In this document: positions 5,069-42,850 of the stretch, piece after piece
Numbering within the stretch: position 1 is the first letter of the stretch
How the letters are laid out: each line of letters opens with the position of its first letter
Assembly (NCBI GenBank): GCA_914767715.1
Contig: OU612072.1
Coordinates: 21,018,001-21,082,000 of the forward strand
DNA: 64,000 nt
Direction of reading: 5' to 3'
Origin: Membranipora membranacea
Lineage: Eukaryota > Bryozoa > Gymnolaemata > Cheilostomatida > Membraniporidae
Notes under the pieces: model-generated
Databases searched by the model: none
Told to the model about the DNA's origin: nothing
What the model saw: the letters and a program-made list of their open reading frames with translations, nothing else
Position numbers and translations under genes: made by a program

Positions 5069-6296
5069 GATAAGAGCATCAACTTCACTGTCACTGCGGG
5101 AGTATTATAGCATTGTTGGCGTAAGGATGTCTTATCAATGCAAAGTCCGTAGCCAGCGAAGTAGGAAAAGTCACACATTTTGCTCTACATGAATTCTTAT
5201 TATTTCACCACTTAGCGCTAAGTTCACTAATCACCTGATAAGAGAACCAGGTGAAACGTTCACTTTGTGTAGTTGAATACTGATGAATCAAGTATCTATT
5301 ATCAATGGTAATATTGCAAGGTCATTAATACAGACAATATGCAGTCTCATGGTAGATAATTCACAATATATAACCAGACCCAGATATTTGTGTCTCAAAT
5401 CTGCTAACAGCATAAATTTAATCACTCACAATATTGCTGATGAGTGCGTCTTATTGGTCGAAGTGATGCATACTTGGCAACACACACCGTGTTTTGATTT
5501 TTGGCTTTATCAATAATATATCTAACTCAAATATAATGCTTCATCCTCTACTGTGTTATGAAGTGTGTCACATTATTAAATGCACTCTTCATATAATTGA
5601 AAAGCAGTGAATGAACCCTTGTCACGCGGCTACATGAGAGCCACAGCTACTTTTTTGTGGCTGGGAAACAAGCCTACAGTCGCGAATAAGACCATTAATC
5701 GATGCCTGATAAGGGTAAAACAGTAATATGATTCAGGATTAATTTGGCAAAAAAATTGATGGGTTGTACGTGTTGCATATGAGAGAAAGCATGAAGGTCG
5801 ACGGTCTGAAATTTACGATGAATATAAACTAGTTGTACCCTGGAAGGGCACAACTCTTACGTTAATGTGTTTGCTAGAATACCTAGGGTACATTTTAACA
5901 TTTGTCTTTCTAGACTATACCATATTTGAATTTTAAACAATGTAACCTGGCAAAGAGTACTTGCAGGATATTTATGATAAGAGTGTCAAATATGCACTTT
6001 GTGGCGGGAGTATTTAATATCGGTGACGTGAGAAGGTCTTCTCAATGCCAAGTGCCCTATTAAAAGTAATGCTTGTTCTACGTAAGTTCAAAATATTCAC
6101 CGCTTATGACTAGATGCATCAAACATTTGATAAGAGAACCTTTTACTGGATAGTATTGGCAACTGTTGCACAAGTTTCTCTTATCTATGTAAATATTACA
6201 ATGTCAGTAATACAGACAAAGTCACGTCTCATGGTCTCCCATGATTAAACATTCATAACCAGATGGCGACGATTACCGTCACACAACTGATGAGAG
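5069..6296. repeat. Array of inverted-GATA modules, locus 1 (two groups of three)
   Basis: Copies of GATAAGAG start at 5069, 5237 and (degenerate) 5403, then again at 5976, 6129 and (degenerate) 6289. Each of the better copies is followed about 50-60 bases later by the reverse complement CTTATC or a variant, usually in a context like 'cttatcaatgtaaatatta'. Within a group the units are about 150-170 bp apart and the groups are 907 bp apart. The block aligns with 18056-19313 and with 39398-40630. It lacks coding content. Confidence 0.8.
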
Positions 6297-6819
6297 CAAG
6301 CAATTCACCATTCACTGCCTGTAGCGGAATATATAATTCCTGGGACTGCATCTTTGCAGGGGAATTAATTTATAAATGGCAACAGCACTGCGATGAATCA
6401 TAGCCTGCATGCGCCTATGACACAACACAAAAATCATAGCCACACACAAACCTTGCATCTGACGCGATGCCAAGCTTCTCGATCTACTGTATTATGATTT
6501 GAATTACATTATATTCATGCATTGTTTGTAATTGAAGGGCAGTGGATGAAGCCATGTCACGCGACTGCACAAAAAGTAAACGCGTGACAAGGCTGTACAG
6601 TCAATGCAGGTAAGAGAATGACATCATGACATCCCGGAGAAATTTGGTGAATAAATTGATGAGTCACATGTATTGGATATGTTATTTAGCAAGAGGGGCC
6701 AGGGTCTTGAAATGTGCAATGATTAAGGAATAATAATACCTGATAGGGCACAGCTTTTATGTTCTGCTTGAATCTGTCCTCAATTTGTAAGCAAATGGGA
6801 GAATACCTGGAGATAAGAA

Positions 6820-7051
6820 TTGAGTTAAAACTTGGGATTTGGGGGTTTTGACTTATACCGAATCTAATGATATAATCAATTTTCATGTCACATGACCCGA
6901 TATACAAAATGGCCGCCATAAACAGGGAATTGCTGCCGATTAACAGTTCTTATCTTGCGATTGAGTTAAAACTTGGGGTATGGGGGTTTCTATATATACC
7001 GAATCTTATGACATCATTAATTTTCATGTCACATGACCCGATATACAAAAT
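6820..7051. repeat. Two direct copies of a 92-bp unit
   Basis: The sequence from 6820 to 6911 (from 'attgagttaaaacttggg' to 'cccgatatacaaaat') recurs at 6960-7051 with a few substitutions, an offset of 140 bp. No frame of interest runs through both copies. Confidence 0.8.
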
Positions 7052-7165
7052 CATTGTAATTCATAATACAAACGGATAATGTTATAATGGAAAAATTGCG
7101 AAAACACAAAAGAAGGGAGTTGTCATAGCTGAGCATGCAGGCTAATTGTGGATTGCGTGAGCTTA

Positions 7166-7206
7166 CGAGGGAGGGAAGGAGGGACGGTGGGAGGGAGGGA
7201 GGGACG
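7166..7206. repeat. Short GGGA-rich low-complexity tract
   Basis: An imperfect run of GGGA and GGGAC units on the plus strand. Frames that cross it are artefacts of low complexity. Confidence 0.8.
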
Positions 7207-7577
7207 TAACCCACTGGTGCCTATAACTATGCCTCAGTGCAGCTGTCATGTATGATTGCGGAAAATGCTGACATCTCAGAATTACAGTCAGTTTATTATC
7301 TGATAGATTAATCTTGTGAATATTTTTTCCCAGTTGAGATCACATTTTTTTAGATCACACTTGTACTGACATCATTTCTATCTTTTGTCTACAAGGTCGT
7401 TCATTGACCCACAATGGGAATACTGTTTTGTTAAATCGAGAAGGATCTGGACTAAAGATAGCGATCCTACAGAAAGTATCTCCAAATATATACTTCACAG
7501 TGTAGTTAAGGTCAGATTGTTGTCCAAGATGAGAAGTTTTGAAGCTTTTACCTCGAACACAAAAATCCCTTCCCTAC

Positions 7578-8301: not shown

Positions 8302-8302
8302 A

Positions 8303-8813: not shown

Positions 8814-8818
8814 TAAAA

Positions 8819-12726: not shown

Positions 12727-14765
12727 TCACTGCGTTTCATACCCAAGAATTGTCTGACAATTCTGTACAATTCTAGAATTGTCAGAAACTGACCTATATA
12801 TCATTACCCAACCAGCAACCATTATTGTGTAATTTACCCTGCCTGCTAAATAAATTACTTTCATTATTGTTATTATATAGTCATAGTATAAGCCTTTACA
12901 GTTCTAGTCAATATCATACAATTGGATTGACATTGTATTCAATGAGTTTGTATTTAGATGACCAGGCAAGATATGCTGTAATGAATAGATATTGCTGTGC
13001 AAGGTAGCATCAAAATCTGTATTGCGGGAGGCCTAGGTTCAAATCCCGCCAGGGCAAATCTTTTCCTTTTGTTTCATCATGATGGAAAATGAAAGCATTC
13101 CCTTCGAATTGTTGGCTCACAATTTTTGTAAGCACAGAAAACTCTTAATAATGAGTATGATGACCCGACAAAATACTTATTTTCAACTCTTCTGTGTTGT
13201 ACCATACCCTATGTTATATTTTGTGCAATCTGTTAATATTGGCAGCAACTGCATAAATATAATACATCAGCTAAACTATGCTAGCAGAATTATCAGAAAA
13301 CTTTGCTACTAATATAAATGTACAACATCGCTCCCAAGATGAGCGAGGAATTACTTTGTATCAACCGTCCTACATGCCTAAGTGGAGAGAAGTGATATGT
13401 GAATGAGGCCATATTATCCACAGAACCACTGACTACTGAAAACATGCTGACTGATGCTTAAAAACTCAAACTTGGTGTCACAGCAAGTAGTATGAGTACT
13501 GATTATTGGCATAGTCTAAACTACGCTCCTTGTGATTATTGAGAGTGAATGGGTTTCAGCTATTTCTATTTGTTGGCCAAAGATGCTCTGAGCATGGAGT
13601 TAGCTCTGAATGTTATGGTATGTGGGCTGAGGGAGGCAAAGGTAAATCAACTATCGTAAGCCTGGTATATATTCATTACCTGTCTACAAAGGAGCTCTTG
13701 ATGTTATACTATATCATTCCCAGCCATCTCAGTTATATGGTGTACAGGAAGCAATGTTGGCATATTTCTTTCTCACTCTTGGATGGTAGTTCCCTAGTAG
13801 GTGTTGGCACTAGTACAGATAGTATTAAAATGTTAGACTAGTGCCAACACCGTTTAAAGTAATAAATTTTAATCTGTCAGCTTGAGAGCCACAACCAGGG
13901 AGGTTAGCCAATAACAGGCATAATTACATAATTAACTTGATATATTTGTTGTCAAAATTTTTAATTGTACAATTAAGTATAATTAACACTGTTTGTTAAT
14001 CCTTCATACACATTCCATTGCGCTTGTAACAAGTCATCATGTCACACTTGTGGAATCAGAGAGACAGGAGTCATTGTAAGCTGACCTAACTTCCTGTCTT
14101 TTGCTGCTGATAATGAATGCGGTGAGTTTTGAATTTCGCGAACATTCATTTTTATAATGATGGTTGTTTGGGTGTAATTGCAATCATAAGCATTCTTTGT
14201 CAGAAGAGTGAGGGAGGGGCGGGAAGTTGTAACATTTTATGCAAAGAGCTAGATAATTGTCCAAATTACATTTGTATAATTTTATCAAATTATTTCATCA
14301 AACTCTGCTTCAAAGCTCATCATTGTACAGAGTTATTATGTCAAGAATGAGATTGCCTCGCAAAAAAACCTTAAATTCTCTGGCGCCCTTATTCTCCAGT
14401 ATTTACAGAAAAGTTTCATTGATTTTCCGCGCTTCTTGGTCAACTTCAAGAGTTGAGCCAGCATTTACCCACAGGGTTGTCCATTTTAAAATCTACTGGT
14501 ACCTTATAAGTTCTGTGAAGGTTGCCTATGAATGCCAGTGTAAACAAAATGAACATTCTGACTGGCTTATTTTGATTATGACTTCATGGGTAAATAACTT
14601 GGATACCAACAATACATCCAATTATGCTTGGCTAAGATGTTGATGTCAATTGAAAGGTAAACAATTATTGGCAAATGGCACTGTGAGAATCTTGTTCAAA
14701 TTCAATAAGCTAATCTCATTGAAAATGATCAGGCAGATTAAACTGTACATTGTAGCCATTAATTG
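12727..14765 (+). repeat. Left arm of a 4.4-kb inverted repeat
   Basis: From 'tcactgcgtttcataccc' at 12727 to 'gtagccattaattg' ending at 14765, the sequence is the near-perfect reverse complement of 15073-17127. The arms are 2039 and 2055 bp with a 307-bp spacer. The left arm carries a 100-codon frame (13539-13841) whose counterpart in the right arm has many synonymous-looking and a few residue changes. Neither shows a known domain, and their parallel presence is explained by the inverted duplication. A shorter 128-codon frame (14257-14643) is not kept full length in the other arm. I do not call these genes. Confidence 0.85.
12993..13057 (+). other. tRNA-like 3' half in the left arm
   Basis: A B-box-like GGTTCAAATCC sits in GCGGGAGGCCTAGGTTCAAA and is followed by a CCCGCCAGGGCA stretch and then a short T-rich run. 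It resembles the T arm and acceptor 3' strand of an alanine-type tRNA, but the matching 5' acceptor strand is missing. Its right-arm counterpart (16796-16861, minus strand) has diverged in exactly this stretch. Probably a tRNA-derived relic. Confidence 0.35.
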
Positions 14766-15072
14766 AATTTTATGGTATATGAGTAGAGAGAAGCATGAGT
14801 AAATCAAACAGGCCTATCATTCAATGACACAATAGAACTCGTTTGTATAGAATGTCTGGTGGTCACTGGAAATTCTAAATTTATCAATGCAGCTGATAAT
14901 AATAATCTGAGAGCTTTGAAAGATTATCTGCCAAGAGGCTGTCCAGGCAATAATTTATCGCTTTAAAATTTAACAGCTGTAATGGCCCTGCAAGCCCCTA
15001 ATGTGAATTTGTTGAAATGATTGGAATTTCAGGCTGATAGAACCTTTAACATACCAAACTCTTTGATGCATG
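14766..15072. other. Spacer between the arms of the 4.4-kb inverted repeat
   Basis: Unique 307-bp AT-rich sequence between the two arms. It encodes no protein of note. If the locus is transcribed this would be the loop of a 2-kb hairpin RNA. Confidence 0.7.
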
Positions 15073-17989: not shown

Positions 17990-18055
17990 GTGTGCTAACC
18001 ATTATTTGGATTTCAATATATGTATCCTGGCGACGATTAACCGGATCATAATTAT

Positions 18056-20238
18056 GATAAGAGCATCAACTTCACGTGTCACTGCAGGAGAATTATAGCA
18101 TTGTTGATGCGAGGATGCCTTATCAATGCTAAGCTCGCATGGCTGCTAATTAGGAAAAGTCACACTTCTTGTTCTACATGAACTCTTAATATTTCACGAC
18201 TTAGCGCTAAGTTCACCAATCACCTGATAAGACTGCCAGGTGAACCTTTCACTTTGTGTTGTTGATTGCTGATGACGCAAGTATCTCTTATCAATGTAAA
18301 TATTGCAAGACGCGGATGTTCGTGTTACACATCTGATAATAGCATAGAATTCACCTCTCACAATACGGTTGATGAGTGCGTCTTATCGGTCGAAGTGCTG
18401 GATACGTCATGGCAACACACGCTGTGTTTGCTTTTTGGCTTTAGCATGCCTATCAATATATCTAACTCTAATATCATGCTTCATCCTCTACTGTATTATG
18501 AATTGTGTTACGCTATAAAATGCACTGTTCCTACAATTGAATAGCAGTGGGTGAACCCTTGTCACCCGGCTACATAAGGGCCACAGCTATTTGTTTGTGG
18601 CTGTGCAACAAGCCTACAGTTTATGCGAATAAGACCATTAATCCATGCCTGATAAGGGTAGAACAGTAATAATAATGATTCAGGATATATTTGGCAAATA
18701 ATTTGATAGGTTGTTTGTGTTGCATATGGGATAAAGCATGAAGGTCGAGGGTCTAAAATGCACAATGATTAGGAACTAATTGTACCCTGAGAGGGCACAA
18801 CTCTTAGGTTAATCTGTTTCATTTTGGAGGTGAGTTCGAGCATAGCTAGATTCAAGCAGTCACTGAGGGTACATTTTAACATATCCCTTTCATGTGTATA
18901 CCATATATGAATGTTAAACAATGTAACCTGGCAAAGGGCGTGTTTTTGTTGTTGGCAAAAAGTACTTGCAGGATATTTATGATAAGAGTGCAAAATACAC
19001 ACTTTGCGGTGGGAGTACTAAATATTGGTGACATGAGACGGTCTTATCAATGATAAGTGCGCAAGACAGCGCCCTATTAAAAGTCATGCTTGTTCTATGT
19101 AAGTTCCAAATATTCACCTCTTTTGGCTAGATGCGTCTAACATTTGATAAGATATCCTTTCACTGGATATTATCGAATACTGTTGCACGAGTTTCTCTTA
19201 TCTATGTAAATTCTACAAGGTCAGTAATAAAGACAAAGTCACGTCTCATGGTCTCCCTTGATTAAACGTACATAACCAGATGGTGACGATTCGCGTCACA
19301 CAACTGATAAGAGCAAGCAATTGACCACTAACTTTGATTTTTTCTGATTTTAGGGCTGCGCCAATACCAAAATCTTATTCAGCTTATACTGTGCAACTCA
19401 CTTCAAGTTCATTGAACAATGCTCATGAGCTGCTGGACATAACCTCCAATATCCAAGGAATTGGGAAGAAGTCTAAGTCAATTTATTTTCAAAATGGTAT
19501 GCCAAAGGGAAAAAATATCTATTTCAATGCTCAGCCCTAATCTTGGGGAGAAAGTTGCAGTTAACTCACTGTGTTAGATTAAATTCAGAGTCACAAAGCT
19601 ATTGGTATGTAATATCATGCATTACAGTGATGAACCAATGGTATCCAGGAGACATGAACTGATAGCACAGCCCATCCCTCCACCCTCTGAAGTTATTCAT
19701 CATTCTCAGAGCTGTAAACGATGAACTCACTCTAATTTCAGCAGAATGTGTCATCCCACCTTTCTTTCTTGACTATACCTTGTTTTGATTTCTAACTATA
19801 ATCCTGGTTGAATTGTTTGCATCATCTTTGTCTTAGGAGTGTCGAATTCATATTTTGCTGCAGGAGATCTAAACATTGTTACGTGAGAAGGTCTTATCAA
19901 TGCTTAGTTCAAGAGGCACTGAAATAGGAAAAGTCAAAGATTCTATTCTACATGAATTCTAAATATTTAACCACTTACATGCAGTGTACATGCATCTGAC
20001 ATCTGATAAGCTCACCAAGTAGGCCTTTCACTTGTTCTTATGGAATACTGTTAATCCTGTTGACGCAAAGTTTCTCTTATCAATGTTATTATTGCAAGGT
20101 CAGAAATAAACACATCGTCCCATCGCATGTTCAGTAATTCAATATATTACCAAATGGCTTGCGTCACACATTTGGTAAGAGCACAGTAATTAACCACTCA
20201 TCGCTAGTTGCCGAAAATAATTGATGTCTCTCCTTATC
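18056..20238. repeat. Array of inverted-GATA modules, locus 2 (three groups), 3' of NHL gene A
   Basis: GATAAGAG or close variants start at 18056, 18226 and 18334, then 18981, 19146 and 19306, then a degraded set near 19834, 20005 and 20174. Most are paired with CTTATC 50-70 bp later (18119, 18287, 18382, 19043, 19197, 19893, 20076, 20233). Group spacing is about 925 and 855 bp. The first two groups align with 5069-6296; the last part aligns with 41740-42850. The array ends about 460 bp beyond the stop codon of NHL gene A, so it may include its 3' flank. No coding sequence is supported. Confidence 0.8.
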
Positions 20239-20698
20239 AGTGCAAATAATAGCACATTCCTTCATTTAACTGCCAAGCATGACTAAGCTCCTTTCTCCCT
20301 GCTTTAAAATTTGCATTGTATCATAGGCATAAAGTTGTGACCATCGAGTCTTGTATTTAGATTGATTATAAGGTAATATAATATAGGTAAACATTTTTTT
20401 CCTACAATTAATTCAGATTAACGGCCAATGTTGCTGGAAAGTTTTTATGCAAATAATTAAGGAATAATCACATGTTATAAAAAGAAAGGAAGTGAGAGTT
20501 CTAGGATGTAGGTAGGGTAGCACAGCCCCCTGACTTACCTCTGCCACTATCCCCTATGAACTAAGTTTAAATCAAGCATCATGCAATGAATCAATGTAAT
20601 CACAAGGTAGATTAATTATGTAAGTAGCTTCTGTCATTTTAATCCCTACTAAAGGCCCATACTGTGAAGTGACGCAACCTGGTTTAACGTGTTACTTT

Positions 20699-23600
20699 TT
20701 AGACACAGGAATCTGTTCTCTTGTCATACTTTTCATTATGAAGACATAAAGAAGTTAGCACCAGCTCAGCGTACGCCCCTGTCTTTGTCTTTGTTGGATA
20801 GACCAGCCTACAAGATGGGAAAACAGAATAACATCAATTGACTGTTGGGTTTGGTGTTTCAGAATTATCAGAATCTGACTAGCATATCTTTTCATGACAA
20901 ATATAAAAGAAAATAAAGTGAAATTCGGGACAACAATATTAGAATCACTCACGGAGGCGTTCTACTGATGACCACAATATTCAGTATTGGGTATCTGCTC
21001 TCTTCAAGGAGACTGTCTGTTAGTCTCTGCTTCAGTCCTACAGGGATTTCTGTAACTGTGCCATCAAATGTTACATCAGTAGACCAGGTCACTGTCAGGG
21101 TATCATTGTCACAGCTCAGCTTTGCCTTAGAACCAACCTTAGGGATGCAGTCTACAAATCAAATTCCATACAATATGGATGGTCTGGTATTAAAACATAC
21201 ACTGTTTGATTCTTTTTGCCTGCTCCATCATTCAACTCCTCCAAAGCCTAATTACATGTTCAACACTGGCTTTGAGTTTGCTAGTTCTGGCTCTGAAGAT
21301 TTTAACCTTTGTAATATCTATATTGCCATTTATATGCAGTTTTGACATTGTAAACAAATTGTTAGCTAGCATGAAAGGTAAATTAACCATTCGTTTCAAT
21401 ATTAGGTATCAACCAGTCTATAATCATTCTTTGTGAACGTATGATAAGGTATATCCTTCGTAAATAAAAGTACTGAGGTTTAGTCTGAAGGTAACGGTCA
21501 TGTTCTATGTCCTATCCTGTGTATTTGCTAAGTGAAGATATCTGTAATGAAGCACTTACCCTGTTTACATATTTCTCTTATCTGGTTGTCATTACCATCG
21601 GCGGTGACTTTTAGAGTAGATAGCGCGACCGTGTCAGTCAGTACTGTACACTTTATATTATCATACCTAGCAACGAGATCTACTCCTCTCACCAACAAGT
21701 AATCTGCAATATTACTAAACCATGGTTAATACCACTCAGGGCATGACTGTAAGAATTATACAGGGATTTGCAGTTTTCTGTATGGTATTGGAGCTATTTT
21801 CAATAAACTGGCACTACCTTGGAATATAATACTGGCATTAGGTATTGAAATAAATACTGCATTCTCTACCTTTGATTTCTACTTCTAGTGAACAGTTGGT
21901 ATTTCTCCCTTTTATACGATAATTGTAAACCCCCACAGGTAGTTCTAGTGTATGAGTAGTGCCATCCAGTGTGAGGTCAAGCGCTGATAACCCAGTAGAA
22001 GGAGAGGCAACTCCTCTGATTACCTCTGGACACTCTTCATTCTTAGATATTGTACCTGTAAAATTATATTACTCATAATAAAGGTTGAACAACATCTAGT
22101 AGATATAGGTAATGAAAAGTCACCAATTTTGTCCTAAAAGGAACAAAAAACACATGGTCTTGGCGGCTACCAGCAGTATTTAACATATAGCTGAGCTACA
22201 TTATGATACTGATAAGTTATTAAAGCCCAAATGGCCAGTAAGTCATATCGGATTAGGTGCATGTGTACCGAGTTATGCAGGCCTAGATGACTGTGTCTTT
22301 GTTTTCAAGCACAAAAATGGATGATCATGAGCGGCCAAAAATTTGAATATGATGAGGTATGTGTATAATCACCATTATTTATCACCAAAACTTTTATGGG
22401 TGGCTTAAAATGGCTATAAATTATTTATATTATACTCACTGTTGTTTATGACTATAATATTTATAGTGCAGTTGTCTTCATAAATCACATGAGTACCGAC
22501 AGGTAAACTTGTGTTTACACTTGGAGTCACCTCGACTAATGCTCGCCCCTCATCAGATGTCACAAAGAGAGTCATGTTTCTGTCCTGACAAGGCACCCTA
22601 GGAGTAGTTCCTGCAGTTGAAATAAATATTGATTATTTCTGTGAGGATACTATTCAATATTATAGGAGAAAAAATAGTGTCTGGTAGACATACATTTAGT
22701 TTGGGTTCTGAGTTTAGGTACTTGTGAACCAAGTATTTGAGATGGTATAATTCATTCAACGGGCAGCAAGGTATTTTAATGGATAGCTTGAATTAATTGG
22801 CAATCAATTATTTATATTTATACCCACCGTTATTAATGACTATAATGTTTATAGTACAGCCGCTTATATGGATCACATGTCTACCCACAACAAACTCAGT
22901 CTGTATGTCAGGAATTATGTCCACTTGTGCTTTCTCCTCATCGGATGCCACATAGAGAGTCAAGTTTCTGTCCTGACAAGGTCTTTCGGTGGTAGTTATA
23001 TGGGTAGTAGTTGATGGTGTGGTAGTTGTAGGTATTGACATAGTTTTCGGTTTTGGATCTAAAAAATAAACGAGTTTGATTTGGTTGGGTTGGTTTGAAC
23101 ACCTCATTCAAATAAAACAAAAATGTGGTGAAGTGGGATTTTTACATGCTCCATCCACCGATGACTGCACTGCTAGCCGGTCAGTCACATATCGAGGTAC
23201 CAAAAATTCACCACATACTACTCTGCTTTATGATTTAGTTATTTCCAATATCCTTTTATTGAGTTATCTTTTCATGTGAGGCAATGAGGTAAATCTTATC
23301 GAATATCTACTATTTATTGAAAAGATCTATTTTCCTCTAACATGAATATCAGGCAGGGATAGGTAAAGTAATAGAAATGACCAGCATGTACTTACCTATA
23401 AACTCAACATGAGATAGCAATATATATATTGTGTACTCACATATGAACTGCTGGATCCTCTTGTTTTGTCCGACAAACAGTGAGTTATTTGTGATGAGTA
23501 GAGACCAGGGGAAGAACACACATCCTGAGCAGGGATCCAGTGTGGATACTCTGTCTGTATTCATTTCTACGAGTCGGATCTTGTTATTGCCCCAGTCAGC

Positions 23601-25344
23601 CACAAGCAATGTCTGATTACCTATGAATAAGGGGCCACATGGGTAGTTGAATAGTGAGTTTAGTAGAGTGCTGTCTGTGTATCCTGAGGTCCTTGGTGAT
23701 CCTGAGATCAGTGTTATTGTTTTCTCTCTATATGTGACGCGGTGGAGAGCGTGATTACTGTATGCTGTGACATACAGATTCCCGTTGTCATCCTGTGTCA
23801 GGTATGAGATAGACTGGAGGCGGTCGGACTTGACGAAAGTACCAACAGAGGCTGAGCTTACATCGACTGTCCTCACAGCCTTGTTAAGCCGGTCAGTGAC
23901 GAGAAGCTGACTGACATCTTTATTGTCTCTGATTACAGACAAGGGATAGTAGAACTGACCGGGGAGACCGTCTGTGTATCCTCGTGACTGACACTGTCCA
24001 GAGAAGACAGAGGTGATCCCTGTGTGACGGTTAATCTCTCTCAGACAGTGATTACTATAGTCAACTACAAGTATACGCCTATCTGTGACTTGTGTGAATC
24101 CTCGGATATAGTTGAACCTAGCCTCAGTTCCTCTCCCCTCTCTGTATCCACTCTTAGAAGCATTCCCGGCTATGTTCGCAGATGTTGTTCTATTGCTGGT
24201 CTTCAGTGAGTGCTCGTCAGTGTACAGTATGTGACCAGGTTTGAAAAGATCTTTTTCTAGGTGATAAACATAGTAAGAGGTGGTGGTGAAGTTTGTAGCT
24301 GTAGATCTCTCTAATCTGTAAGATTAATATTGTAAACATATAAATATATGTAAATGGATGATGTTGGTTAATTTGATCGTATTAACCCAGTAATTATTGA
24401 ACAAAAAAACCACAGATATTGCAAATGCAATATTTTAAATTCATAATTTAAATGAAGTGTATTTTTCGTATTCTAAGTATTCATGTGCTGGTGGGTGAAT
24501 CAAATATATCAGAATTATTAATTTTCCCAAAATTGATTCAAATGGATAATTGTGTTTTCTATCAACCAATAAAATTTAAATGCAGGTTATGCACCAGACA
24601 CCAAAAAATAAAATATTTTACATGCGGCTTTTGTTCACAGTAAATTTTGGTTATTTGGAGTTGTCTCATGTTGTACACCATGAGGAGGCAATACACAAAA
24701 TTTCCATTAAGCGACCTAACTTCAAAACCTTGATTAAAACAGATATTTGCTTCAATTAATCAACAAAAATGTTTGCATTGTATAAATTACAAAAAAGTAA
24801 CAGCTTGTACCAAAAGTAATGTGTAATATCACAAAACACAAGAAGGAATGAAACGATCAAATGATTAGTTCACTGTACATTGCCTACCCTGAATCTGATA
24901 TTTTTACTAAAGGATATTCTAGCATAGAACTCAGAAGGCTTTCAAACCCATATTTATCACATCAATGGGAAGTGACTCACCGATCAACTAGAGACTGGGT
25001 ATCCTGTTCCATACACCACCCGGTCTTTAGTGTCACACAACATAACACCTGTCAAAACAATGATGGTAATAATTAAGTTTGTTACAAAAGAAATAAGCAA
25101 TGTACTGTAGGTTAGGGGGGGGGAGGCACCTCCCATATAAAGAGAATACTGATTCCCCATTGAGACACTCTGCACACTCATCATATAAGTGTTATGTCAG
25201 GGTTAAAGTATGTCACGCTTGTAATCTTCCGTACTATAACTACTTCTTTTTTTTCAGGATTATTACATAATATCAATTTTAAGGTTATAATTGAATTGCA
25301 ATTCACATTGTACTTACAAGGAAAAGTGCCAGTCTCAGCTCCAT
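20699..25344 (-). CDS. Secreted NHL-repeat protein, paralog A (complete, 9 coding exons, 669 aa)
   Basis: Coding exons from 5' to 3' on the minus strand: 25344-25318, 25048-24981, 24315-23441, 23058-22828, 22610-22440, 22055-21870, 21703-21560, 21151-20953, 20807-20699. All junctions are AG/GT and the phases run 0, 2, then 1 through five introns, then 2, giving 2010 nt with no internal stop. Exons 1-2 encode the hydrophobic signal peptide MELRLALFLVLCCVTLKTG. Exon 3 (about residues 32-324) holds at least four NHL-type strands, for example YSNHCLREINRHTG, LLVTDRLNKAVRTVD, NLYVTAYSNHALHRV and WGNNKIRLVEMNTDRV, expected to fold as a beta-propeller. Exon 4 starts with a Thr/Pro linker (about 326-350), then a module beginning PCQDRN and ending CTINIIVINN; exon 5 repeats that module. 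Exons 6-8 are further small Cys-containing segments, and exon 9 ends in KYDKRTDSCV. No membrane segment follows, so it is probably secreted. NHL propellers usually bind protein, carbohydrate or RNA ligands; the ligand here is unknown. Confidence 0.9.
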
Positions 25345-25520
25345 GATTTTCAACAGGCCTAATATCTTCGTCGGACTATAGCAATATTGATTATAAACCT
25401 CTAGTCTCTCCTCAGTACGGTAAATTAATGAACTGGCAGTGAACATAAACCCGCTGCGGAGGTATTTAGCTAGCGGCAACTAATATTTAACCAGTTATCT
25501 TTTATGTGCGTCAACCTTCA

Positions 25521-25587
25521 GATAAGAGAGCCGAGTAAACCTTTCTCTGCCTGGTACTAAATACTGTTGACGTAGGAATCTCTTATC
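25521..25587. promoter_or_regulatory. Inverted GATA-site pair upstream of NHL gene A
   Basis: GATAAGAG (25521-25528) and its exact reverse complement CTCTTATC (25580-25587) bracket a 51-bp interior, at 177 and 236 bp upstream of the start codon. TGATAA/AGATAAG cores are the classic GATA-factor site. Gene B has the same pair at the same distances. A degraded second module lies about 170 bp farther upstream (near 25688-25785). That it drives transcription is inference. Confidence 0.5.
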
Positions 25588-25599
25588 AGTGTAAACATT

Positions 25600-26450
25600 T
25601 AAAGGTAGCTATATCGGACAAAATCGTGTGTCCTGTTTTAACATAGTCCCCATTATTGAACCAGGGTACTGCTGTGTGCGTCAGAGACCTGATTAGAAGG
25701 ACAAGTGAAACTTTCAGTGCTCAGTACTCAATCATGCTGATACAATGATTCGTATATCACTGTAAATGTTACAGGAGGCAACAAACTTAAATTCCATGAA
25801 AAAGGATGTAAATGTTGGCATGCCTACCTGAGTTTTACTTGATGAGGCCCGATATTTACAAGTCTATGTCTGTTGCATCAATTAAGCTATAATGATAATA
25901 AGGAGTGACAACTCTTTGTTTCTCATCAATATCTCTCTAACGGCACACAATTCTTGTGGTGTTGTTGATGGTGTAACAATTATACCTGTTCCTGTAATTG
26001 TTGATGAGGTTTATCAAGGGGCCTGATGTTTACAAGTCTGAGCTGGTTCGATCAACTGAGCTACAATGATATTAACAAAGGATGACAGCACACACTTCTA
26101 GCGCGTATCAATTTTAGCCAATTTATTAATAGCTATCTTTTATTCAATTGCATTGCATGGATCTCATGACATCAAACTACCTTAACCTTACATACTAGCA
26201 ATAATAGATTTGCAGCGTCTAACTTCTATACGTAAACTGCCGTAAATACCTGATGCCCTTAACTTGTAGAAACCATTAATGATAAGCTCAATGAGAAAAA
26301 GTACTTTATGTGTACGTACAAAGAACCCGTCAATTCAGCATCGCTTACAATTATACAAAGCCTCCGTGATTATTTAGTACATGATGGATTGATAATTTTT
26401 TATGTTTGTAACAAACTTCATTATTCATTTACAAGGCATCCTTGATATTT
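25600..26450. repeat. Duplicated 5' flank of NHL gene A
   Basis: Closely similar in the same orientation to 49240-49900 upstream of gene B, including phrases around 'ggcccgatatttacaagtc' and 'ttagccaatttattaat'. The part from about 26100 also resembles 3590-4740 and 36540-37690. No gene is seen. The similarity stops abruptly at about 26450, where a SINE-like sequence begins. Confidence 0.7.
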
Positions 26451-28576: not shown

Positions 28577-30368
28577 ATATAAACTGCTGGATTCTCCGAC
28601 GTTTTCGACATACAGAGAACTATTAATGATTAGTAGAGACCAGGGTTTCGTCAGACATCCTGAGCAGAGATCTAGTGTGGATACTCTGTCTGCGTTCAGG
28701 TCTACTAGTCGTATCTTGTTGTTGTACTCATCGGCCAAAAGTAGTGACAGATTACCTGATGTGCAGGAGGCCATTTGGGGAGCTAAATAGAGAGTTTAGG
28801 AGAGAGCTGTCTCTGTAGCCTAATGACATTTCGATGATAAGTGTAATTATCTTCTTTTTGTATGTGATATAGTAGAGGGAGTTAGTTACTATGAAATACA
28901 GGTCACCTTTGTCATCCTGTGTCATCTGACTGATTTCCCAGAGGATAACATCTCTTACAAAAGTACCAACAGCTTTTGAGCTGATATTTACTGTTCTCAC
29001 AGCCATGTTAAAGCATTCGGTGACGAGAAGCTGCATGTCAACATTGTTGTCCCTTATTACAAACCAGGAACTGTCGAACTGACCGGGGTGACCATCTGTG
29101 TATACCTGTGACCATCACTGTCCAGAAAACTGTGAGGTGGCTCCTGTGAGACGGTTAATCTCTCTCAGACAGCTATTACTGATGTCAACTACAATGACAT
29201 GTTGATCTGTAATCTCTATGAATCCCATGGGTCCTTTGAATTAAGCCTCAAATCTCTGTATCCTCTCATTGTAGTGTTCCCTGCTATTGTGGTAGAGGAC
29301 GTATCATCGCTAGTCTTTAGTGAGTTCTGATCGAGGTAGATCACATTGTTGCAAGGGGGGGGGATGAGGTCACATGGCTAATAGAGGTCTACCTCCATGT
29401 GATAAACATTGCTCGAGATGGTTACTGTGAAGTTTGTGGCTATAGACCTCTTTAATCTATAAAATTGATATAATTTTGTAAACGTAATGTTACAAGTCCA
29501 GTAATTTTTGACCAAAGAAATTGCATATTCTAGTGATGCAATGATATAATTAAAATTAATTAATCAAATGGGATGTTTCATAATTATAATTTGGATGAAG
29601 GGTGTTTGGCATATGATAATTGTAAAAGCGATGTTTTCAACGGGAACAATTCAGGGTTTCATGATATATTACAACTCTTAAGAAACTGGCAATTCAAATA
29701 TGACCACAAAAAACTTTTTCATGCAATTAATACCGATGAAGAAATGCAACTTTTTCCAAACAACTAAATTGGGCAAACGCATTAGATATATAAAATATAA
29801 GCATTTTCGAGCAAACTTTGTTCGCAATACACTTCTCTCATCAGCAATCAGCAGTAAATAGGTATCACAGCTAACAAGGAGTACTGGTTTTGAACCAATA
29901 CCATTTATGGCCAGTTCCCTCAGCATGGCCTCCCGAATCCGATTTTTAGTAGAGGGTTTTTTTAGAGTCAAACGTTGAAGACTTTCAAAAAACTCATATT
30001 TATTATCACAGCGTCCTGGATACGTGAATAGAATTTACATTGACGGAAAGTGACTCACTGATCAACTAGAGACTGCACATCCTGATCGTTACACCATCCA
30101 GTATCCAGAGTCACACAACATAACACCTGTCAAAATGATACCCTTGATTTAATCTGTTACAAGAGAAATTACCAAATTTTTTTGTTCAGGAGAGGGGACA
30201 ATTCTGAAAATTCATTTGAATTAGTTTCATGTCAGGGTTAAAGCAAACCTGCTAAACATCACAAGTGCTTCAACTACCTTTTCTTCTTCAGAATTACCAA
30301 TTTCAAGGTTATTTTGGAGTCTCAGTTTATATTGAACTTACAAGGAAAAGTGTAAGTCTCAGCTCCAT
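28577..30368 (-). pseudogene. NHL-repeat gene copy C, truncated and broken
   Basis: Three exons homologous to exons 1-3 of genes A and B: 30368-30342 (MELRLTLFL before a GTAAGT donor), 30126-30059 (VLCCVTLDTGWC and onward, ending in VDQ rather than VDR), and 29456-28577. The third is damaged: after HMEVDLY comes TAG, the following stretch contains a poly-C expansion, a further TAG occurs near 29228, and the reading frame shifts around 28760 between 'SPNGLLH' and 'LLLADEYNNKIRLVD'. Exons 4-9 are missing, replaced by GGGA repeats and the CCCCAAA tract. Upstream it lacks the conserved GATA pair of the intact genes. Confidence 0.85.
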
Positions 30369-33300: not shown

Positions 33301-33917
33301 AATACTTGAAGCCATAAGTTTTCACATGGCCTTTAAGTGCAAAGAGACATGAATAGCATATTTACATCATCATAAATTTGGAAATGACGGTTTCACTTCA
33401 GTGCAAACAGAAGTTGTCCCTTCTTTGATGTAGATTGGACAACTTCTATATACGAGAAGAAATCTTAACTATATCAACCAGTAGGCAGGGAGGGTTGGGG
33501 GTCAGGGCGGAGGGTGTCCCACCCTTTCTGCTAGAGGTAATATTATACCTAAACAGGACATTGTGATGTTGCACCATTGAATTGTGTAGTACCAAAGGTG
33601 GTGTTGTTGATTTGAAGTCAAAAGTCCAGATTAGTTAATAACTATATCAATTTTGAAGGCATTTCAAGTTTGAAAATTGAGTTCTATACAAAATACCTGG
33701 ACTGAAGACTGCACTACATATGGACTGTCAATGATGATATCATTGTTACTTTGTTAAAATAAATGGTACTGTAACTTAGTGCCATAGAGCTAATGCTCTA
33801 TATAAAACCCTGTCAAAGTTTATTCTTCGATCCATGATCATGGAATCAGACAAGTCAAGAACACACTTTTTGTTAAGATTCTCACCGGCCATGTCGGGAA
33901 GTGGTATGTGATTATAA
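30369..33917. other. About 3.5 kb with no gene recognised
   Basis: AT-rich sequence with only short frames. There is a small hairpin, AAGTTGTCC at 33411 against GGACAACTT at 33438. I see no exon, RNA gene or element ends that I can support. Confidence 0.4.
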
Positions 33918-33983
33918 TACAATATTATACGTAATAATATAATACTTAACAATATAATACGTAATAATATGATATAATATAAT
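33918..33983. repeat. AT-rich short tandem repeat
   Basis: Irregular repeats of 'aatataatacgtaataat' immediately 3' (in gene sense) of the last visible kinase exon, inside what would be its downstream intron. Confidence 0.8.
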
Positions 33984-33986
33984 TAC

Positions 33987-37695
<3,709 letters not shown>

Positions 37696-37938
37696 TATTT
37701 GTTTACAAGGCACCTCGGGTCATTACACAGCTGCTCGATAGAAATTTGCCTAGCGGCTGCTGTCTGGCCTCCAAAATATAGACATTGTCTACGGCAATGA
37801 TAGGTTTAATAGTTTGTAAGGTAACAAGTCATTGTTTGTATAACTTATCCCTGTGACAGCGGCTCTAACTCTGAATCTCTAAATTTGTGATATTGATACA
37901 TGCCTCAATTTTGATCAACATGATCGCTAATGTCAGTT

Positions 37939-38187
37939 TTAAATTTGTGACAGCATATGTTTACCACAACACCAGTCACATAAAAGTTTGATTTGATTTG
38001 TCTGAAAAAAAACGGCAAGGTGCTCGAAGTCCTCGTACTGAGAGTGTGATACATCCCAGAAAACTAGAATGCATCCTAGAGGAGACGCCATGGTGTACCT
38101 CCTAATCGTGAGTGTGCAGCAAGCCATTGGCAGTGACACTTTGATCTTAGCCAATAGGCCGAGAAGCGATCTGTTCCTACCATACAC
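37939..38187 (-). CDS. Short unassigned ORF with a possible SEFIR/TIR-like start
   Basis: An 82-codon frame in the 1.36-kb segment that is absent from the first copy of the block. Its second half reads GCILVFWDVSHSQYEDFEHL, then AVFFQTNQIKLLCDW. A hydrophobic strand, a D/S-rich turn, an amphipathic helix and a second strand in that order loosely resemble the first half of SEFIR (IL-17 receptor type) or TIR domains. No splice partners are identified and there is no second copy to show conservation. It could be a decayed exon or chance. Confidence 0.2.
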   Translation of the reverse strand: MYGRNRSLLGLLAKIKVSLPMACCTLTIRRYTMASPLGCILVFWDVSHSQYEDFEHLAVFFQTNQIKLLCDWCCGKHMLSQI

Positions 38188-38302
38188 CGCAAGTTGTTTG
38201 ATACAATGCTTAGTGACTGCTCACTGTCACAGAGCAGCCAAATCTAGCAGTGCTATAAAACTAAGGTCAGGCCTGTCAAAGTTAGTTGCTCTTACCAGAT
38301 AA

Positions 38303-39060
38303 AATACTGGGAACTTAAATTGTACAGAGTCATGTTCCTTGCTGCTATATACTATATATATCCTGAGAGCTGCACGGTGTGTATTTATCATGTGATAATG
38401 CTAACGCGGGCGTAGGGACGACAACTCCAATTCTTGCAATTTTTCATGAAATCATAATTAACTGTTCCTAATGTGCACAATAATTATCTTAAGGTCTGGA
38501 AAATCAACCATTTCTTCCATTCTAACTAGGGTAAGCAGTGTTTGGATGTATGAAAATAGTAGAGCCGGAGGTGTAATTTCTGCTAAGTACTAGCATCGAC
38601 TTTGGCAAATTAAAACGGTCCTAACATGGAAGACATGCAAAAAGCACCATTTTGCAACTTACTTTGCAAGTAATTTAGACATTACATGTTCCTAAATAGG
38701 GATTCTTTGTCAATAGATTAAGAGAAAGGAAGGCCAGCAAACTAGAAAAGGGATGATTGATAGCGTCATTCAATCATCTGTCATCGCCCATGACTGTCTT
38801 ATGAAATCAACCAAAACTTGTAACTTTAAAAATATTAGCAGGCCTTACCAATCTAAAGATGTTGTAAGCAGTGTCTTTGTTTTAGGAGCGATACAAGACT
38901 GAGTAATTTGGTGAGAGCGGTGTTGGGAAATATAGGAATATGATCCCAAAAATGTCGCAACTTTGTATGGTTGGATCACATACTATTGGATAGGCTATTG
39001 AGCATGCCTGAATATTGAAGTGTGCCAGGATTAATTATATCCTGCGTTTAGCTTAACTCC
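38303..39060. other. No gene recognised
   Basis: Right part of the segment unique to copy 2. AT-rich, no frame or repeat that I can support. Similarity to copy 1 resumes at about 39060 with 'ggtcgaggaatacccgagta'. Confidence 0.4.
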
Positions 39061-39397
39061 ATGCTCTGTTTATATATAGGTCGAGGAATACCCGAGTACA
39101 GGTAGTACGTCAGAGTTGAGGTGGACTGGAAAGTAAAGTATAAACATTGCATTGTGGGATACCATATTACTGTAGTACTATGGGGTCTGTGAGGCCAGCA
39201 CTGAGAGCACAGCACACACCCCATCCTCCCCCTTCATTGAAGTTGTTATTATTATTCTCAGGGGTGTAAACACAAAGCTCACTCAAACTCCAGCATATTG
39301 TGTGATCCGACCTCTCTTTCTCAATTAACCCATATTTGGATTTCAATATAATAATAATAATATGCATCCTGGCGATGATTATTCCCATCATAATTAT

Positions 39398-42300
39398 GAT
39401 AAGAGCATCAACTTCACGTGTCACTGCGGGAGTATTTTAGCATTGTTGATGTAAGGACGTCTTATCAATGCAAAGTCCGTAGCCAGCGAAGTAGGACAAG
39501 TCACACATTTTGCTCTACATGAATTCTTATTATTTCACCACTTAGCGCTAAGTTCACTAATCACCTGATAAGAGTACCAGGTGAAACTTTCACTTTGTGT
39601 AGTTGAATACTGATGACTCAAGTATCTATTATAAATGTAAATATTGCAAGGTCATTAATACAGACAATATGCAGTCTCATGGTTGAAAATTCACAATATA
39701 TAACCAGACCCGGATATTTGTGTCTCAAATCTGATAATAGCATAAATTAACCACTCACAAAATAGCTGATGAGTGTGTCTTATTGGTCGAAGTGATGCAT
39801 ACATGGCAACACACACCTGTTCTGATTTTTTGGCTTTATCAATATATCTAACTCCAATATAATGCTTCATCCTCTACTGTCTTATGAACTGTGTCACATT
39901 ATAAAATGCACTCTTCGAATAATTGAATAGCAGTGAATGAACCCTTGTCAAGCGGCTACATGAGGGCCACAGCTACTTTTTTTGGCTGCGCAACAAGCCT
40001 ACAGATGCGAATAAGACCATTAATCGATGCCTGATAAGGGTAAATCAGTAATATGATTCAGGATTAATTTGGCAAATAATTTGATGGGTTGTATGTCTTG
40101 CATATGAGAGAAAGCATGAAGGTCGACGGTCTAAAATTCACAACATATGAACTAATTGTACCCTGGAAGGGCACAACTCTTACGTTAATCTGTTTTCTAG
40201 AATGCCTAGGGTACATTTTAACATTTGTCTTTCTCGACTATACCATATTTGAATTTTAAACAATGTAACCTGGCAAAGCGTATTTGCAGGATATTTATGG
40301 TAAGAGTGTAAAATACGCACTTTGTGGCGGGAGTATTTAATATTGGTGACGTGACAAGGTCTTATCAATGCCAAGTGCACGGGACTGCGCCCTATTAAAA
40401 GTAATGGGTGTTCTACGTAAGTTCCAAATATTCACAGCTTATGACTAGATGCGTCAAACATTTGATAAGAGAACCTTTCACTGGATAATATTGCCAACTT
40501 TTGCACAAGTTTCTCTTACCTATGTAAATATTACAATGTCAGTAATACAGACAAAGTCACGTCTCATGGTCTCCCTTGATTAAACATTCATAACCAGATG
40601 GCGATGATTTCTGTCACACAACTGATGAGAGCAAGCAATTCACCGTTCACTGCCTGTAGCGGATTATATAATTCCTGGGACTGGGTCTTTGCAGGGGAAT
40701 TAATTTATACATGACAACAGCATTGCGATGATTCATAGCCTACATGCGCCTATGACACAACACAAAAATCATAGCCACACACAAACCTTTCATCTGACGC
40801 GATGCCAAGCTTCTCGATCTATTGTATTATGATTTGAATTACATTATATTCATGCATTGTTTGTAATTGAAGGACAGGGGATGAAGCCGTGTCACGCGGC
40901 CCACACACAAAGTAAACACGTGACAAGGCTGTACAGTCAATGCAGGTAGGAGAATGACATCATGACAGCTAAGGGTAAAATAAAAAAACAAAATCCAGGA
41001 CAGTTTTGGTGAATACATTGATGAGTTACATGTCTTGGATATGTTATATAGCAAGAGGGGCCAGGGTCTGGAATGTGCAATGATTAGGGATAAATAATAC
41101 CACATAGGGCACAGCATTTATTTTCGGCATGAATCTGCCCTCAATTTGTAAGCAAAGGGGAGAATAACCGGAATCAAGCATTCAGGGCTTAGTGTTATCA
41201 ATTGAGTTAATAATTAAAATGTTTAGCTTGAGGTAAATTTGAATCCATTATCATGCGGCACAGAGAGGAAGCAATGATATCTAAGAGGTCAGGAGCGAGA
41301 TTGGGAACATCCTATACCCGTCTGAAGTAATTCACCAATCTCAGGGGTGTTTACAACGAGCTCACAGGGACCTCAGCGGCAAATCTCATCCCACCCCTCT
41401 TTCTTGACTATACGTTATTGGATGTTCAACTTAAGGTCTTATCAATGCTAAGCTGACAGAACAGCTCCCTAATGAAATTCACATTGTTTGTTCTACATCA
41501 GTTCTAAATAATACATCACCACTCATGGCTAGATGCGTCATACATTTGATCGAGAGAATCTTTCACTGGTTACTATTGAATATTGTTGACGCAAGTTTCT
41601 CTTAGCAATGTAAATATTACAAGGTCACTAGTACAGACAAATTCACGGCTCAATAAACAAATTATAATCAGAAGACGGCTGTTTGCCTCACACAACCGAT
41701 AAGAGCACCCAATAAACTACTAGCCTTGATTTTTCCTGATTTTAGGGCTTGGCCAATACCAAAATGTTATCCAGCTCATACTGTGCAAGTCAATACAAGT
41801 TCATTGAACAATGCTTATAAACTACTGGACGTAAACTCAAATATCCAAGAATTTGGGATTAAGTCTGAATGAATTTCTTTCAACAATGTAACGCCATAAG
41901 GAAAAAATATCTATTGCAATGCTCAGCCCTAATCTTGGGGAAAAATGGCATGTAATTGACTGTGTAAGATAAAACTCAGAGACACAAAGGTATTGGTATG
42001 TAATATCATGCAATACAGTGATGAACCAATGGAATCCAGGAGACATGACCTGATAGCACAGCCCATCTCTCCACCTGAAGTTAATCATCATTCACAGAGG
42101 TGTATACAATGAGCTAACTCTAACTTCCGCAGCGTGTGTCATCCGACCTCTCTTTCTTGACTATACCTTATTTGAATTTCTAACTATATAGCCTGGAAAA
42201 ATTGTTTGCATCATCTTTGTGATTAGACTGTCGAATTCATTTTTCGCTGTGGGAGATCTAAACCTTGTTGACGTGAGAAGGTTTTATCCACGCTAAGTTC

Positions 42301-42850
42301 AAATGGTTGTGAGATAGGAAAAGCCACACTTCCTATTCTACATAAATTCTAAATTTTTCACAACTTCAGTGAAGTGAATGATACATGGCAACAAACACTG
42401 CTTGGATACAATGTTATGTGATTGCTTTTGATTCATAAAGTCCATAGCAGTGCATTACAACCAAAGTCAGGCCTGTTGAAGCTTGTAATTCCCATCATAT
42501 ATAGTGAGACATGGAAGCAAAATTGTGACGCTTCGTGCTAACATAATTGCAGCCTGGCTTGAAAAGCTTTTTTTGGTTGGGGGGGGGGGTGCAGTGTACA
42601 GGCATCTAACATCAGATAAGAGCACTGAGTGGGCCTTTCACTTGTTATGGAATACTGTTGACACAAGTTTCTCTTATCAAAGTTTTTATTGCAAAGTCAG
42701 AAATAAACACAACGTCCCATTGCATGGTCAGTAACTCAATACAAATAAACCCAAATGGCTTGCGTCACACATCTGATAAGCGTACAGTATTAGCCATGGC
42801 GCTTTGCTAGTCACTGAAAATAGCTGATGTGGTTATATCTTTATCTGTGC
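39398..42850. repeat. Array of inverted-GATA modules, locus 3, 3' of NHL gene B
   Basis: GATAAGAG-type starts at 39398, 39567 and about 39736, then 40299 (GGTAAGAG), 40464 and about 40624, then degraded copies near 41549 and 41698, then 42615 and 42775. Partners of the CTTATC type lie at 39461, 40355, 40515, 41600 (as CTTAGC) and 42673. It aligns with 4760-6840 (via 39065-41180) and with 17990-20290. It is the longest of the arrays and lies about 1 kb beyond the stop of NHL gene B, the same arrangement as locus 2 and gene A. Confidence 0.8.

What the first reader, a model, noticed from the sequence alone, without database searches (positions are those of the whole stretch)
5069..42850. Hierarchical repeat made of inverted GATA-site pairs
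A module with GATAAGAG at one end and CTTATC at the other, about 57-77 bp long, recurs in groups of about three at 150-170 bp spacing, and the groups recur every 850-930 bp. It is seen at three loci totalling at least nine groups. Interiors have diverged, but the inverted GATA cores and the following 'aatgtaaatatta' phrase are often kept. This two-level periodicity is not explained by a known element type that I recognise. It could be an amplified promoter module, a satellite built from a transposon end, or a protein-binding array.
Basis: partly seen in the sequence, partly recalled or inferred. Interest (0 to 1): 0.75.

Follow-up and report, generated by a model that had tools for sequence, protein, structure and literature searches.

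The report
Decayed array of GATA-site promoter modules
A roughly 168-base DNA unit carrying two opposed GATA-type binding sites, probably once a gene-control element, was copied in groups of three into arrays between duplicated animal genes, and most copies now appear to be wearing away.

Summary
A ~168-bp unit, GATAAGAG...~60 bp...CTTATCAATG, is found 32 times, each time on the + strand. It forms a two-level repeat: three units (a, b, c) and a spacer make a ~900-bp group, with 2, 3 and 4 groups in arrays A, B and C. Copies resemble each other more by position in the group than by neighbourhood. A, B and C are paralogues of one array in blocks duplicated with minus-strand NHL-repeat genes. Across old divergences the GATA cores changed about 0.4 times as fast as the rest (0 of 152 shifted masks as extreme); among recent duplicates constraint is unclear. 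Coding, RNA-hairpin and Rfam readings failed. Best explanation: a GATA-factor promoter/enhancer module, amplified in tandem while functional, then duplicated with its gene; promoter-proximal copies may still work, array copies look like relics. Binding is inferred. Genome-wide copy number could not be tested, because the genome search did not complete, so a satellite or transposon origin stays open. The organism was not identified.

The parts
5023..6407 (+). Array A: units A1a-A1b-A1c (5023, 5192, 5358) and A2a-A2b-A2c (5930, 6085, 6244); two higher-order groups
   Evidence: six profile hits, E 4e-31 to 7e-19; tree
18010..20257 (+). Array B: three higher-order groups (units at 18010, 18181, 18313; 18956, 19102, 19261; 19789, 19955, 20140). 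The last group matches group 4 of array C
   Evidence: nine profile hits; paralogous to C at 78-84% in four pieces; tree
39356..42890 (+). Array C: four higher-order groups (units at 39356, 39522, 39688; 40253, 40420, 40579; 41508, 41654 with a partial a-unit at 41433-41502; 42176, 42589, 42755)
   Evidence: eleven profile hits plus the partial one at E 0.0035; paralogous to A at 90%
25480..25795 (+). Promoter-proximal units P1 (25480-25640) and P2 (25645-25795), 136-451 bp 5' of the start codon of NHL gene B (minus strand, ATG at 25344)
   Evidence: profile hits E 1.4e-34 and 5.4e-25; start codon; opposed sites at -244 and -181 from ATG
49116..49414 (+). Promoter-proximal units Q1 (49116-49247) and Q2 (49266-49414), 133-431 bp 5' of the start codon of NHL gene C (minus strand, ATG at 48983)
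   Evidence: profile hits; start codon; opposed sites at -244 and -181
51057..52071 (+). Two partial units (51057-51140 and 52013-52071), starts 956 bp apart: possibly the remains of a further array 5' of gene C
   Evidence: profile hits E 2e-11 and 1e-8
4886..5022 (+). Spacer stretch next to unit a, shared by groups 1, 3 and 4 (further copies 19613-19785, 39215-39340, 41249-41432, 42057-42175; group 2 shares only about 25 bp of it with group 4)
   Evidence: pairwise BLASTN of spacers cut free of units, 71-76% over 101-175 bp between groups
5547..5824 (+). Second spacer stretch, shared by the spacers of group 2 (also 18487-18799, 39873-40132) and group 3 (40818-41113)
   Evidence: pairwise BLASTN of spacers, 68-74% over 65-156 bp between groups
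23349..25344 (-). NHL-repeat gene B, 5' part: exon 1 encodes MELRLALFL and ends at a GTAAGT donor; exon 2 at 25048-24980; NHL exon 24323-23349
   Evidence: Pfam NHL E 7e-7; exon positions; splice sites by eye
47038..48983 (-). NHL-repeat gene C, 5' part (same layout as gene B)
   Evidence: Pfam NHL E 3e-10
28752..30368 (-). Gene D, a more diverged relative of genes B and C (no Pfam match of its own in the piece scanned); its 600 bp 5' of ATG hold no unit of the family
   Evidence: self-BLAST to genes B and C; Pfam 0 families; start codon; upstream scan; no profile hit

Best explanation
The unit is a cis-regulatory (promoter or enhancer) module built around two opposed high-affinity GATA-factor sites about 60 bp apart. 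It worked at the 5' side of tandemly duplicated, minus-strand genes for secreted NHL-repeat proteins. Read in gene orientation, a unit runs: ACTGATAAGAG-like site, inverted CTCTTATC site, TTGACGCA-like site, then a TTAAATA-like A+T block. Local unequal crossing-over multiplied the unit to trimers, the trimer plus spacer to ~900-bp groups of up to four, and later segmental duplication copied the array together with the gene. While units multiplied, the GATA cores were kept. After the array was duplicated, most array copies lost that constraint and now decay, while the promoter-proximal pair next to genes B and C may still act. Shown: anatomy, higher-order structure, duplication of the blocks, gene starts, old core conservation. 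Inferred: that a GATA factor is the binder, that the units drive transcription, and the crossing-over mechanism.
For: Higher-order structure: mean identity 0.635 for the same position in different groups (78 pairs), against 0.490 for different positions in the same group (67 pairs) and 0.484 for neither (158 pairs); ML tree by position. The best-kept 8-mers are GATAAGAG and, away from it, TCTTATCA (0.82 and 0.71 mean pairwise identity; core mean 0.739, rest 0.473). A profile with cores masked recovers 32 of 32 copies and no other at E <= 1, with the cores still among the best-kept stretches. Old divergence (JC) 0.32 in cores, 0.86 elsewhere, 0 of 152 shifted masks as extreme; recent divergence 30/327 in cores, 224/1939 elsewhere, 26 of 152 shifts as low. 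TGATAAGA density 2.96/kb in arrays and pairs, 0.07/kb outside (arrays were defined with a profile that contains the cores). Units P1/P2 and Q1/Q2 lie just 5' of two ATGs, with the site pair at -244 and -181 in both. P1 against Q1 differs at 3 of 143 sites plus 18 gap columns, the intron stretch 24340-25300 at 73 of 952 plus 43 gap columns (p 0.012 on substitutions, picked after the fact). ACTGATAAGA, exact in P1 and Q1, is the motif that one study links to the GATA factor ELT-2, about 100 bp upstream of start sites (PMC12270918, passages seen).
Against: No expression, chromatin or binding data. The third NHL-family gene with a visible start (D) has no unit upstream, so the unit is not needed in this family. 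Array pairs A-C and B-C show no core constraint (Fisher p 0.56 and 0.82), against p 0.019 for A-B (pairs not independent). When the promoter stretch is taken whole (25372-25640) it is no more conserved than the intron (16/251 against 73/952, p 0.59). In P2/Q2 the right core differs at 3 sites. The block from intron 1 to P2 is more similar between genes B and C than the NHL exon is (dS 0.26), so gene conversion could explain the low P1/Q1 divergence. The 23 seeds of the first profile were chosen mostly by their cores, so some ascertainment bias remains despite the masked search. The reading of the other blocks as a bZIP-like site and a TATA-like box is by eye and recalled.
Confidence: 0.45

Rival explanations
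1. A local higher-order satellite (minisatellite-like array) with no regulatory role: a 168-bp monomer amplified by unequal crossing-over in a gene-cluster spacer. The cores were kept by a satellite-binding protein or by chance of amplification, and the copies near the gene starts are leftovers of the same array.
For: Classical monomer/higher-order pattern and one orientation; array copies evolve at one rate over cores and rest in recent pairs A-C and B-C; gene D lacks the unit; the promoter stretch as a whole is not more conserved than the intron.
Against: Cores are kept far better than the rest across old divergences, at a sequence matching a known factor motif; four copies sit at the same place 5' of two start codons, although genes B and C are themselves duplicates, so this is one origin and not two.
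Confidence: 0.3
2. A small inverted-repeat transposon (MITE-like) whose ends are the GATA-like inverted motifs, inserted in a promoter and then amplified in tandem, as MITE-derived promoters are known in nematodes.
For: 9-bp inverted ends TGATAAGAG/CTCTTATCA, extended weakly to ACAT...ATGT (consensus). MITE inverted repeats carrying factor motifs became germline promoters in Caenorhabditis (PMC9757741, passages seen).
Against: Conserved blocks exist outside the inverted motifs, for instance ATATTTAACCAG and TGCGTCA; flanks of the consensus are inverted, not direct, so no TSD is seen; 32 of 32 copies share one orientation.
Confidence: 0.15
3. Decayed protein-coding exons: CTGATAAGA reads L-I-R, TCTCTTATC reads S-L-I, and one copy at 49262-49459 is open for 66 codons.
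For: tblastn of that open copy matches several other units in frame (its duplicate at 25.6 kb, then E 1e-5 to 0.02 within the window).
Against: No three-base periodicity of conservation outside the cores (p 0.25); three stops in that frame of the consensus; core-to-core distances of 51, 61, 62, 63 and 71 bp do not keep one frame; no homologue found for the open copy (a word-based search with limited reach) and no significant Pfam family (best E 0.17).
Confidence: 0.03
4. A structured RNA (hairpin, ribozyme or miRNA-like precursor) with GATAAGA/TCTTATC as its stem.
For: The cores are complementary by construction (209 of 264 pair cells are standard pairs).
Against: 0 compensatory double changes among those 264 cells; folding z-scores -1.35 to +0.93 for 8 of 32 units; no Rfam match at gathering score in the window, and in arrays B and C one weak minus-strand match each, far below its gathering score, E 4.1 and 4.5 (array A was not searched in that mode).
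Confidence: 0.02

Closest known systems
GATA-factor target promoters, e.g. C. elegans ACTGATAAGA motif of ELT-2-dependent genes (PMC12270918, passages seen)
   Same: P1 and Q1 carry exact ACTGATAAGA, 244 bp from the ATG; in the study the motif lies about 100 bp upstream of start sites
   Different: Here the sites come as opposed pairs in 168-bp units repeated in higher-order arrays; no binding data; organism unknown
MITE-derived promoters CERP2/CELE2 of Caenorhabditis (PMC9757741, passages seen)
   Same: Paired motifs in a repeated short element that lies at promoters of many genes
   Different: Those are dispersed MITEs; here head-to-tail copies in one gene cluster, no TSD seen, genome-wide spread untested
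Higher-order-repeat satellites (general knowledge, e.g. alpha satellite of 171-bp monomers; recalled)
   Same: Monomers of about 170 bp, more alike by position in the higher-order unit than to neighbours
   Different: Only 2-4 higher-order units per array in the window, a non-monomeric spacer in each, located between genes, with two sharply conserved binding-site-like cores

Membership tests
Higher-order tandem repeat (satellite type) | head-to-tail monomers in one orientation | tested here: met
   32 of 32 profile hits on +, mostly contiguous in threes
Higher-order tandem repeat (satellite type) | monomers more similar by position in the higher-order unit than to neighbours | tested here: met
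   0.635 (78 pairs) against 0.490 (67 pairs); tree
Higher-order tandem repeat (satellite type) | large arrays of many homogeneous copies | tested here: not met
   2-4 diverged groups per array in the window; rest of the genome not seen
GATA-factor promoter/enhancer module | conserved WGATAR-type sites above the rest of the sequence | tested here: met
   old divergence 0.32 against 0.86, 0 of 152 shifted masks; recent divergence inconclusive
GATA-factor promoter/enhancer module | position at gene 5' ends | tested here: inconclusive
   two of the three NHL-family genes whose start was found, and these two are duplicates; array copies are not at any start found here
GATA-factor promoter/enhancer module | binding by a GATA factor and effect on transcription | not testable with these tools
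   needs ChIP, ATAC-seq or reporter assay
MITE (miniature inverted-repeat transposon) | terminal inverted repeats | tested here: inconclusive
   9-bp inverted motifs exist but are internal to a conserved 168-bp unit
MITE (miniature inverted-repeat transposon) | target-site duplications flanking the copies | tested here: inconclusive
   consensus flanks are ACAT...ATGT, inverted and not direct (by eye); single old copies could have lost a TSD
MITE (miniature inverted-repeat transposon) | many dispersed copies in the genome | tested here: inconclusive
   none outside the cluster layout within the 64 kb; genome search unanswered (12 calls)
Decayed coding exons | codon-phase pattern of conservation or homologous proteins | tested here: not met
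Structured non-coding RNA | covariation or a known family | tested here: not met

The most novel reading that the evidence does not exclude
The arrays were, or in some tissue still are, a regulatory hub of tandem opposed GATA-site pairs (up to about 12 units per array, phased at ~168 bp, near a nucleosome repeat) shared by a cluster of tandem secreted-protein genes. Promoter modules would then have grown into a higher-order satellite by selection for GATA dosage, a route from promoter to satellite.
Probability: 0.12. Interest if true: 0.65.

Novelty: new variant of a known kind. Interest (0 to 1): 0.42.

Why it matters
If the unit is a promoter module, the window shows one cis-regulatory element in several states side by side: at two gene starts, as arrays of trimers, and decaying. 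That would show how a control element turns into satellite-like DNA, and would allow a direct test of whether repeated opposed GATA sites add up in strength. If it is a plain satellite, it is still an unusual higher-order repeat between genes with two well-kept cores.

Tried and rejected
Coding exon idea: attractive at first because the cores read L-I-R and S-L-I and one copy is open; dropped after no 3-base phase, no homologues and no significant Pfam match.

RNA hairpin and ribozyme: no covariation, ordinary folding energy, no Rfam family.

Decayed duplicate of the gene's 5' end in each group: a leader profile matched only the three genes it was built from, and the two signal-peptide exons gave good tblastn matches only there.

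Spacers: a profile of nine hand-cut spacers found its own nine members again, which proves nothing by itself; pairwise comparison then showed that spacers are only partly shared, one stretch by groups 1, 3 and 4 and another by groups 2 and 3. Hidden further units in the spacers: one weak match in the spacer before group C3 (its partial a-unit, E 2e-4); four others at E 0.25 or worse.

External copies: no viral-contig match to the site-pair pattern or to peptide patterns of the NHL exon; genome contigs gave ten loci of bacterial MAGs with distant NHL propellers (24-36% identity), not examined further. The bacterial-type promoter scan is of no use for a eukaryote.

Literature (listings only unless said otherwise): terms sponge/GATA/tandem repeat/promoter, 66 papers, 8 listed; TGATAAGA/GATA, 697 papers, 12 listed; satellite DNA/GATA/higher-order repeat, 9 listed of 9; satellite/tandem repeat/GATA binding sites/array/intergenic, none. 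The titles and abstract starts shown describe no such array; this is far from proof that none is in print. Other searches. I had guessed a sponge; nothing here tests that, and the two sponge papers looked at (PMC4773876, PMC4021757, passages) bear on the finding only if the guess is right.
Full report
What is there. A profile built from 23 hand-picked copies and iterated finds 32 copies of a unit of about 168 bp at E <= 1e-3, 32 of 32 on the + strand. The consensus holds TGATAAGAG on the left and TCTTATCAATG on the right. By location: array A 6 copies, array B 9, array C 11, pairs at 25480-25795 and 49116-49414 with 4, and two partial copies at 51057 and 52013. The pattern exceeds chance widely: 26 GATAAGAG against 2.25 expected, and 11 exact inverted pairs against a mean of 0.18 in 200 dinucleotide shuffles, maximum 2.

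Two levels. Units come in threes (a, b, c), followed by a spacer; groups are mostly 845-935 bp apart, with steps of 1.07-1.09 kb in array C. Among the 26 array copies, units at the same position of different groups are 63.5% identical on average (78 pairs), different positions in the same group 49.0% (67 pairs), neither 48.4% (158 pairs), and the same group and position in different arrays 85.6% (21 pairs). An ML tree of 30 copies (the two partial ones left out) groups them largely by position, with several deep forks weakly supported, and pairs group 1 of A, B and C, group 2 of A, B and C, and the last group of B with group 4 of C. Unit B2c goes with C2c/A2c and C3c, and BLAST joins the stretch after it to group 3 of C, so array B seems to have fused or lost a group. 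Array C shows the fullest form and A keeps two groups. Spacers are only partly common: a stretch of 101-175 bp next to unit a is shared by groups 1, 3 and 4 at 71-76%, and another of up to 156 bp by groups 2 and 3 at 68-74%.

Larger setting. Self-BLAST shows that arrays A, B and C are parts of larger duplicated blocks: 2552-6824 matches 35498-41185 at 88-90%, with extra DNA at 37.7-39.1 kb, and 17996-26294 matches 39326-49914 in pieces at 71-89%. The blocks hold minus-strand genes with NHL repeats (Pfam, genes B and C). Exon 1 of genes B, C and D encodes MELRLALFL or MELRLTLFL before a GTAAGT donor, and exon 2 continues with a cysteine-bearing stretch, as in a signal peptide; start codons lie at 25344, 48983 and 30368 (splice sites and signal peptide by eye). 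A search with the NHL exon gave 134 proteins at E <= 0.001, of which 120 were listed; the first 96 of these are 46-66% identical, the rest mostly bacterial-looking at about 30%. The species was not identified. Arrays B and C lie on the 3' side of genes B and C (3' ends not mapped), and the pairs P and Q lie directly 5' of these genes.

The pairs at the gene starts. In genes B and C the opposed sites lie at -244 and -181 from the ATG, followed in gene orientation by TTGACGCA, ATAAAAGATAA and GGTTAAATATT. Gene D has no unit in its 600 bp upstream. Unit P1 against Q1 differs at 3 of 143 sites with 18 gap columns, while the intron stretch 24340-25300 differs at 73 of 952 with 43 gap columns (Fisher p 0.012 on substitutions, picked after the fact); P2 against Q2 differs at 9 of 150, and the leader between P1 and the ATG at 13 of 108. 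Taken whole, 25372-25640 differs at 16 of 251 and is not distinguishable from the intron (p 0.59) (all). The NHL exons differ more (dN 0.16, dS 0.26) than this non-coding block, so gene conversion is a live alternative to constraint. Genes B and C are themselves duplicates, so the two promoters count as one origin.

Conservation of the cores. Over copies clustered at 75% identity (14.8 effective copies) the cores average 0.739 pairwise identity, other columns 0.473; 6 of 20,000 column shuffles gave a 9-column window as conserved as the left core. A profile with both cores masked still finds 32 of 32 copies and no other at E <= 1, and the cores remain among the best-kept stretches. This limits but does not remove the bias from choosing seeds by their cores. 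Splitting time into old and recent with 30 of 32 copies (the two partial ones dropped): old Jukes-Cantor distance is 0.32 in cores and 0.86 elsewhere, and none of 152 shifted masks is as extreme; recent changes are 30 of 327 in cores and 224 of 1939 elsewhere, a difference reached by 26 of 152 shifts. Pair by pair, core against the rest of the unit: A-C 6/119 against 56/822 (p 0.56), B-C 24/168 against 157/1015 (p 0.82), A-B 8/108 against 109/691 (p 0.019), 25-49 kb 3/40 against 9/252 (p 0.22). The pairs share lineages and are not independent. The simplest reading is constraint in the past and little or none on most array copies now. A mutation cold spot at the cores is unlikely, since it should slow recent change as well.

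What it is not. The unit shows no three-base pattern of conservation (p 0.25), and its open copy at 49262-49459 has no homologue found (a search that needs shared exact words) and no significant Pfam family. The complementary cores show 0 compensatory double changes in 264 cells; 8 of 32 units folded gave z between -1.35 and +0.93; Rfam gives nothing at gathering score for the window, and one weak chance-level match each in arrays B and C. No copy of exon 1 or of the leader was found in the spacers.

Mechanism. I take the unit to be a GATA-factor promoter or enhancer module. TGATAAGA has 23 occurrences in 7783 bp of arrays and pairs and 4 in the remaining 56 kb. ACTGATAAGA, exact in P1 and Q1, is the motif found enriched about 100 bp upstream of start sites in genes that depend on the GATA factor ELT-2 in C. 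elegans (PMC12270918, passages seen). Tandem growth by unequal crossing-over and later block duplication are inferred from the order of similarities. Binding and promoter activity are inferred and untested. A plain higher-order satellite and a MITE-like origin remain; for the latter, the nematode precedent of MITE inverted repeats becoming promoters is close (PMC9757741, passages seen), but no target-site duplication is visible in the consensus and no dispersed copy in the window.

Verdict. Interest is moderate: the structure is unusual and well defined, but its parts are of known kinds and its function rests on inference.

Noticed in passing
12727-14768 and 15070-17127: A 2-kb inverted repeat at 92% identity with a ~300-bp centre, lying between arrays A and B; possibly a fold-back element or an inverted duplication.
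   Followed up: no
23318-24317 and 24318-25917, compared with gene C: NHL coding exons of genes B and C are more diverged (9-24% per 100 bp; dN 0.16, dS 0.26) than the adjoining introns and promoter (2-12% per 100 bp): patchy gene conversion or exon exchange.
   Followed up: partly
22403-23067, 45617-46709: Internally repeated Thr-rich linker plus Cys-containing domain exons in NHL genes B and C; the stretch is longer in gene C.
   Followed up: no
54088-54220 and 60936-61009: The same 31-bp minisatellite unit (CTGAAGGATCACAGGGGACCAGCTCAATACT and its rotation) within a second duplicated block, 53.6-64 kb.
   Followed up: no
33912-34205 (minus): ORF fragment MDPPQRLTCEQLLNHQYFD, resembling the end of a protein-kinase domain (by eye, recalled), in an ORF that overlaps a 23-bp tandem repeat.
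   Followed up: no
6819-7051: Two 92-bp copies 141 bp apart at 89%, starting within 6 bp of where homology of array A to array C stops (6824); may mark an insertion or deletion breakpoint.
   Followed up: no
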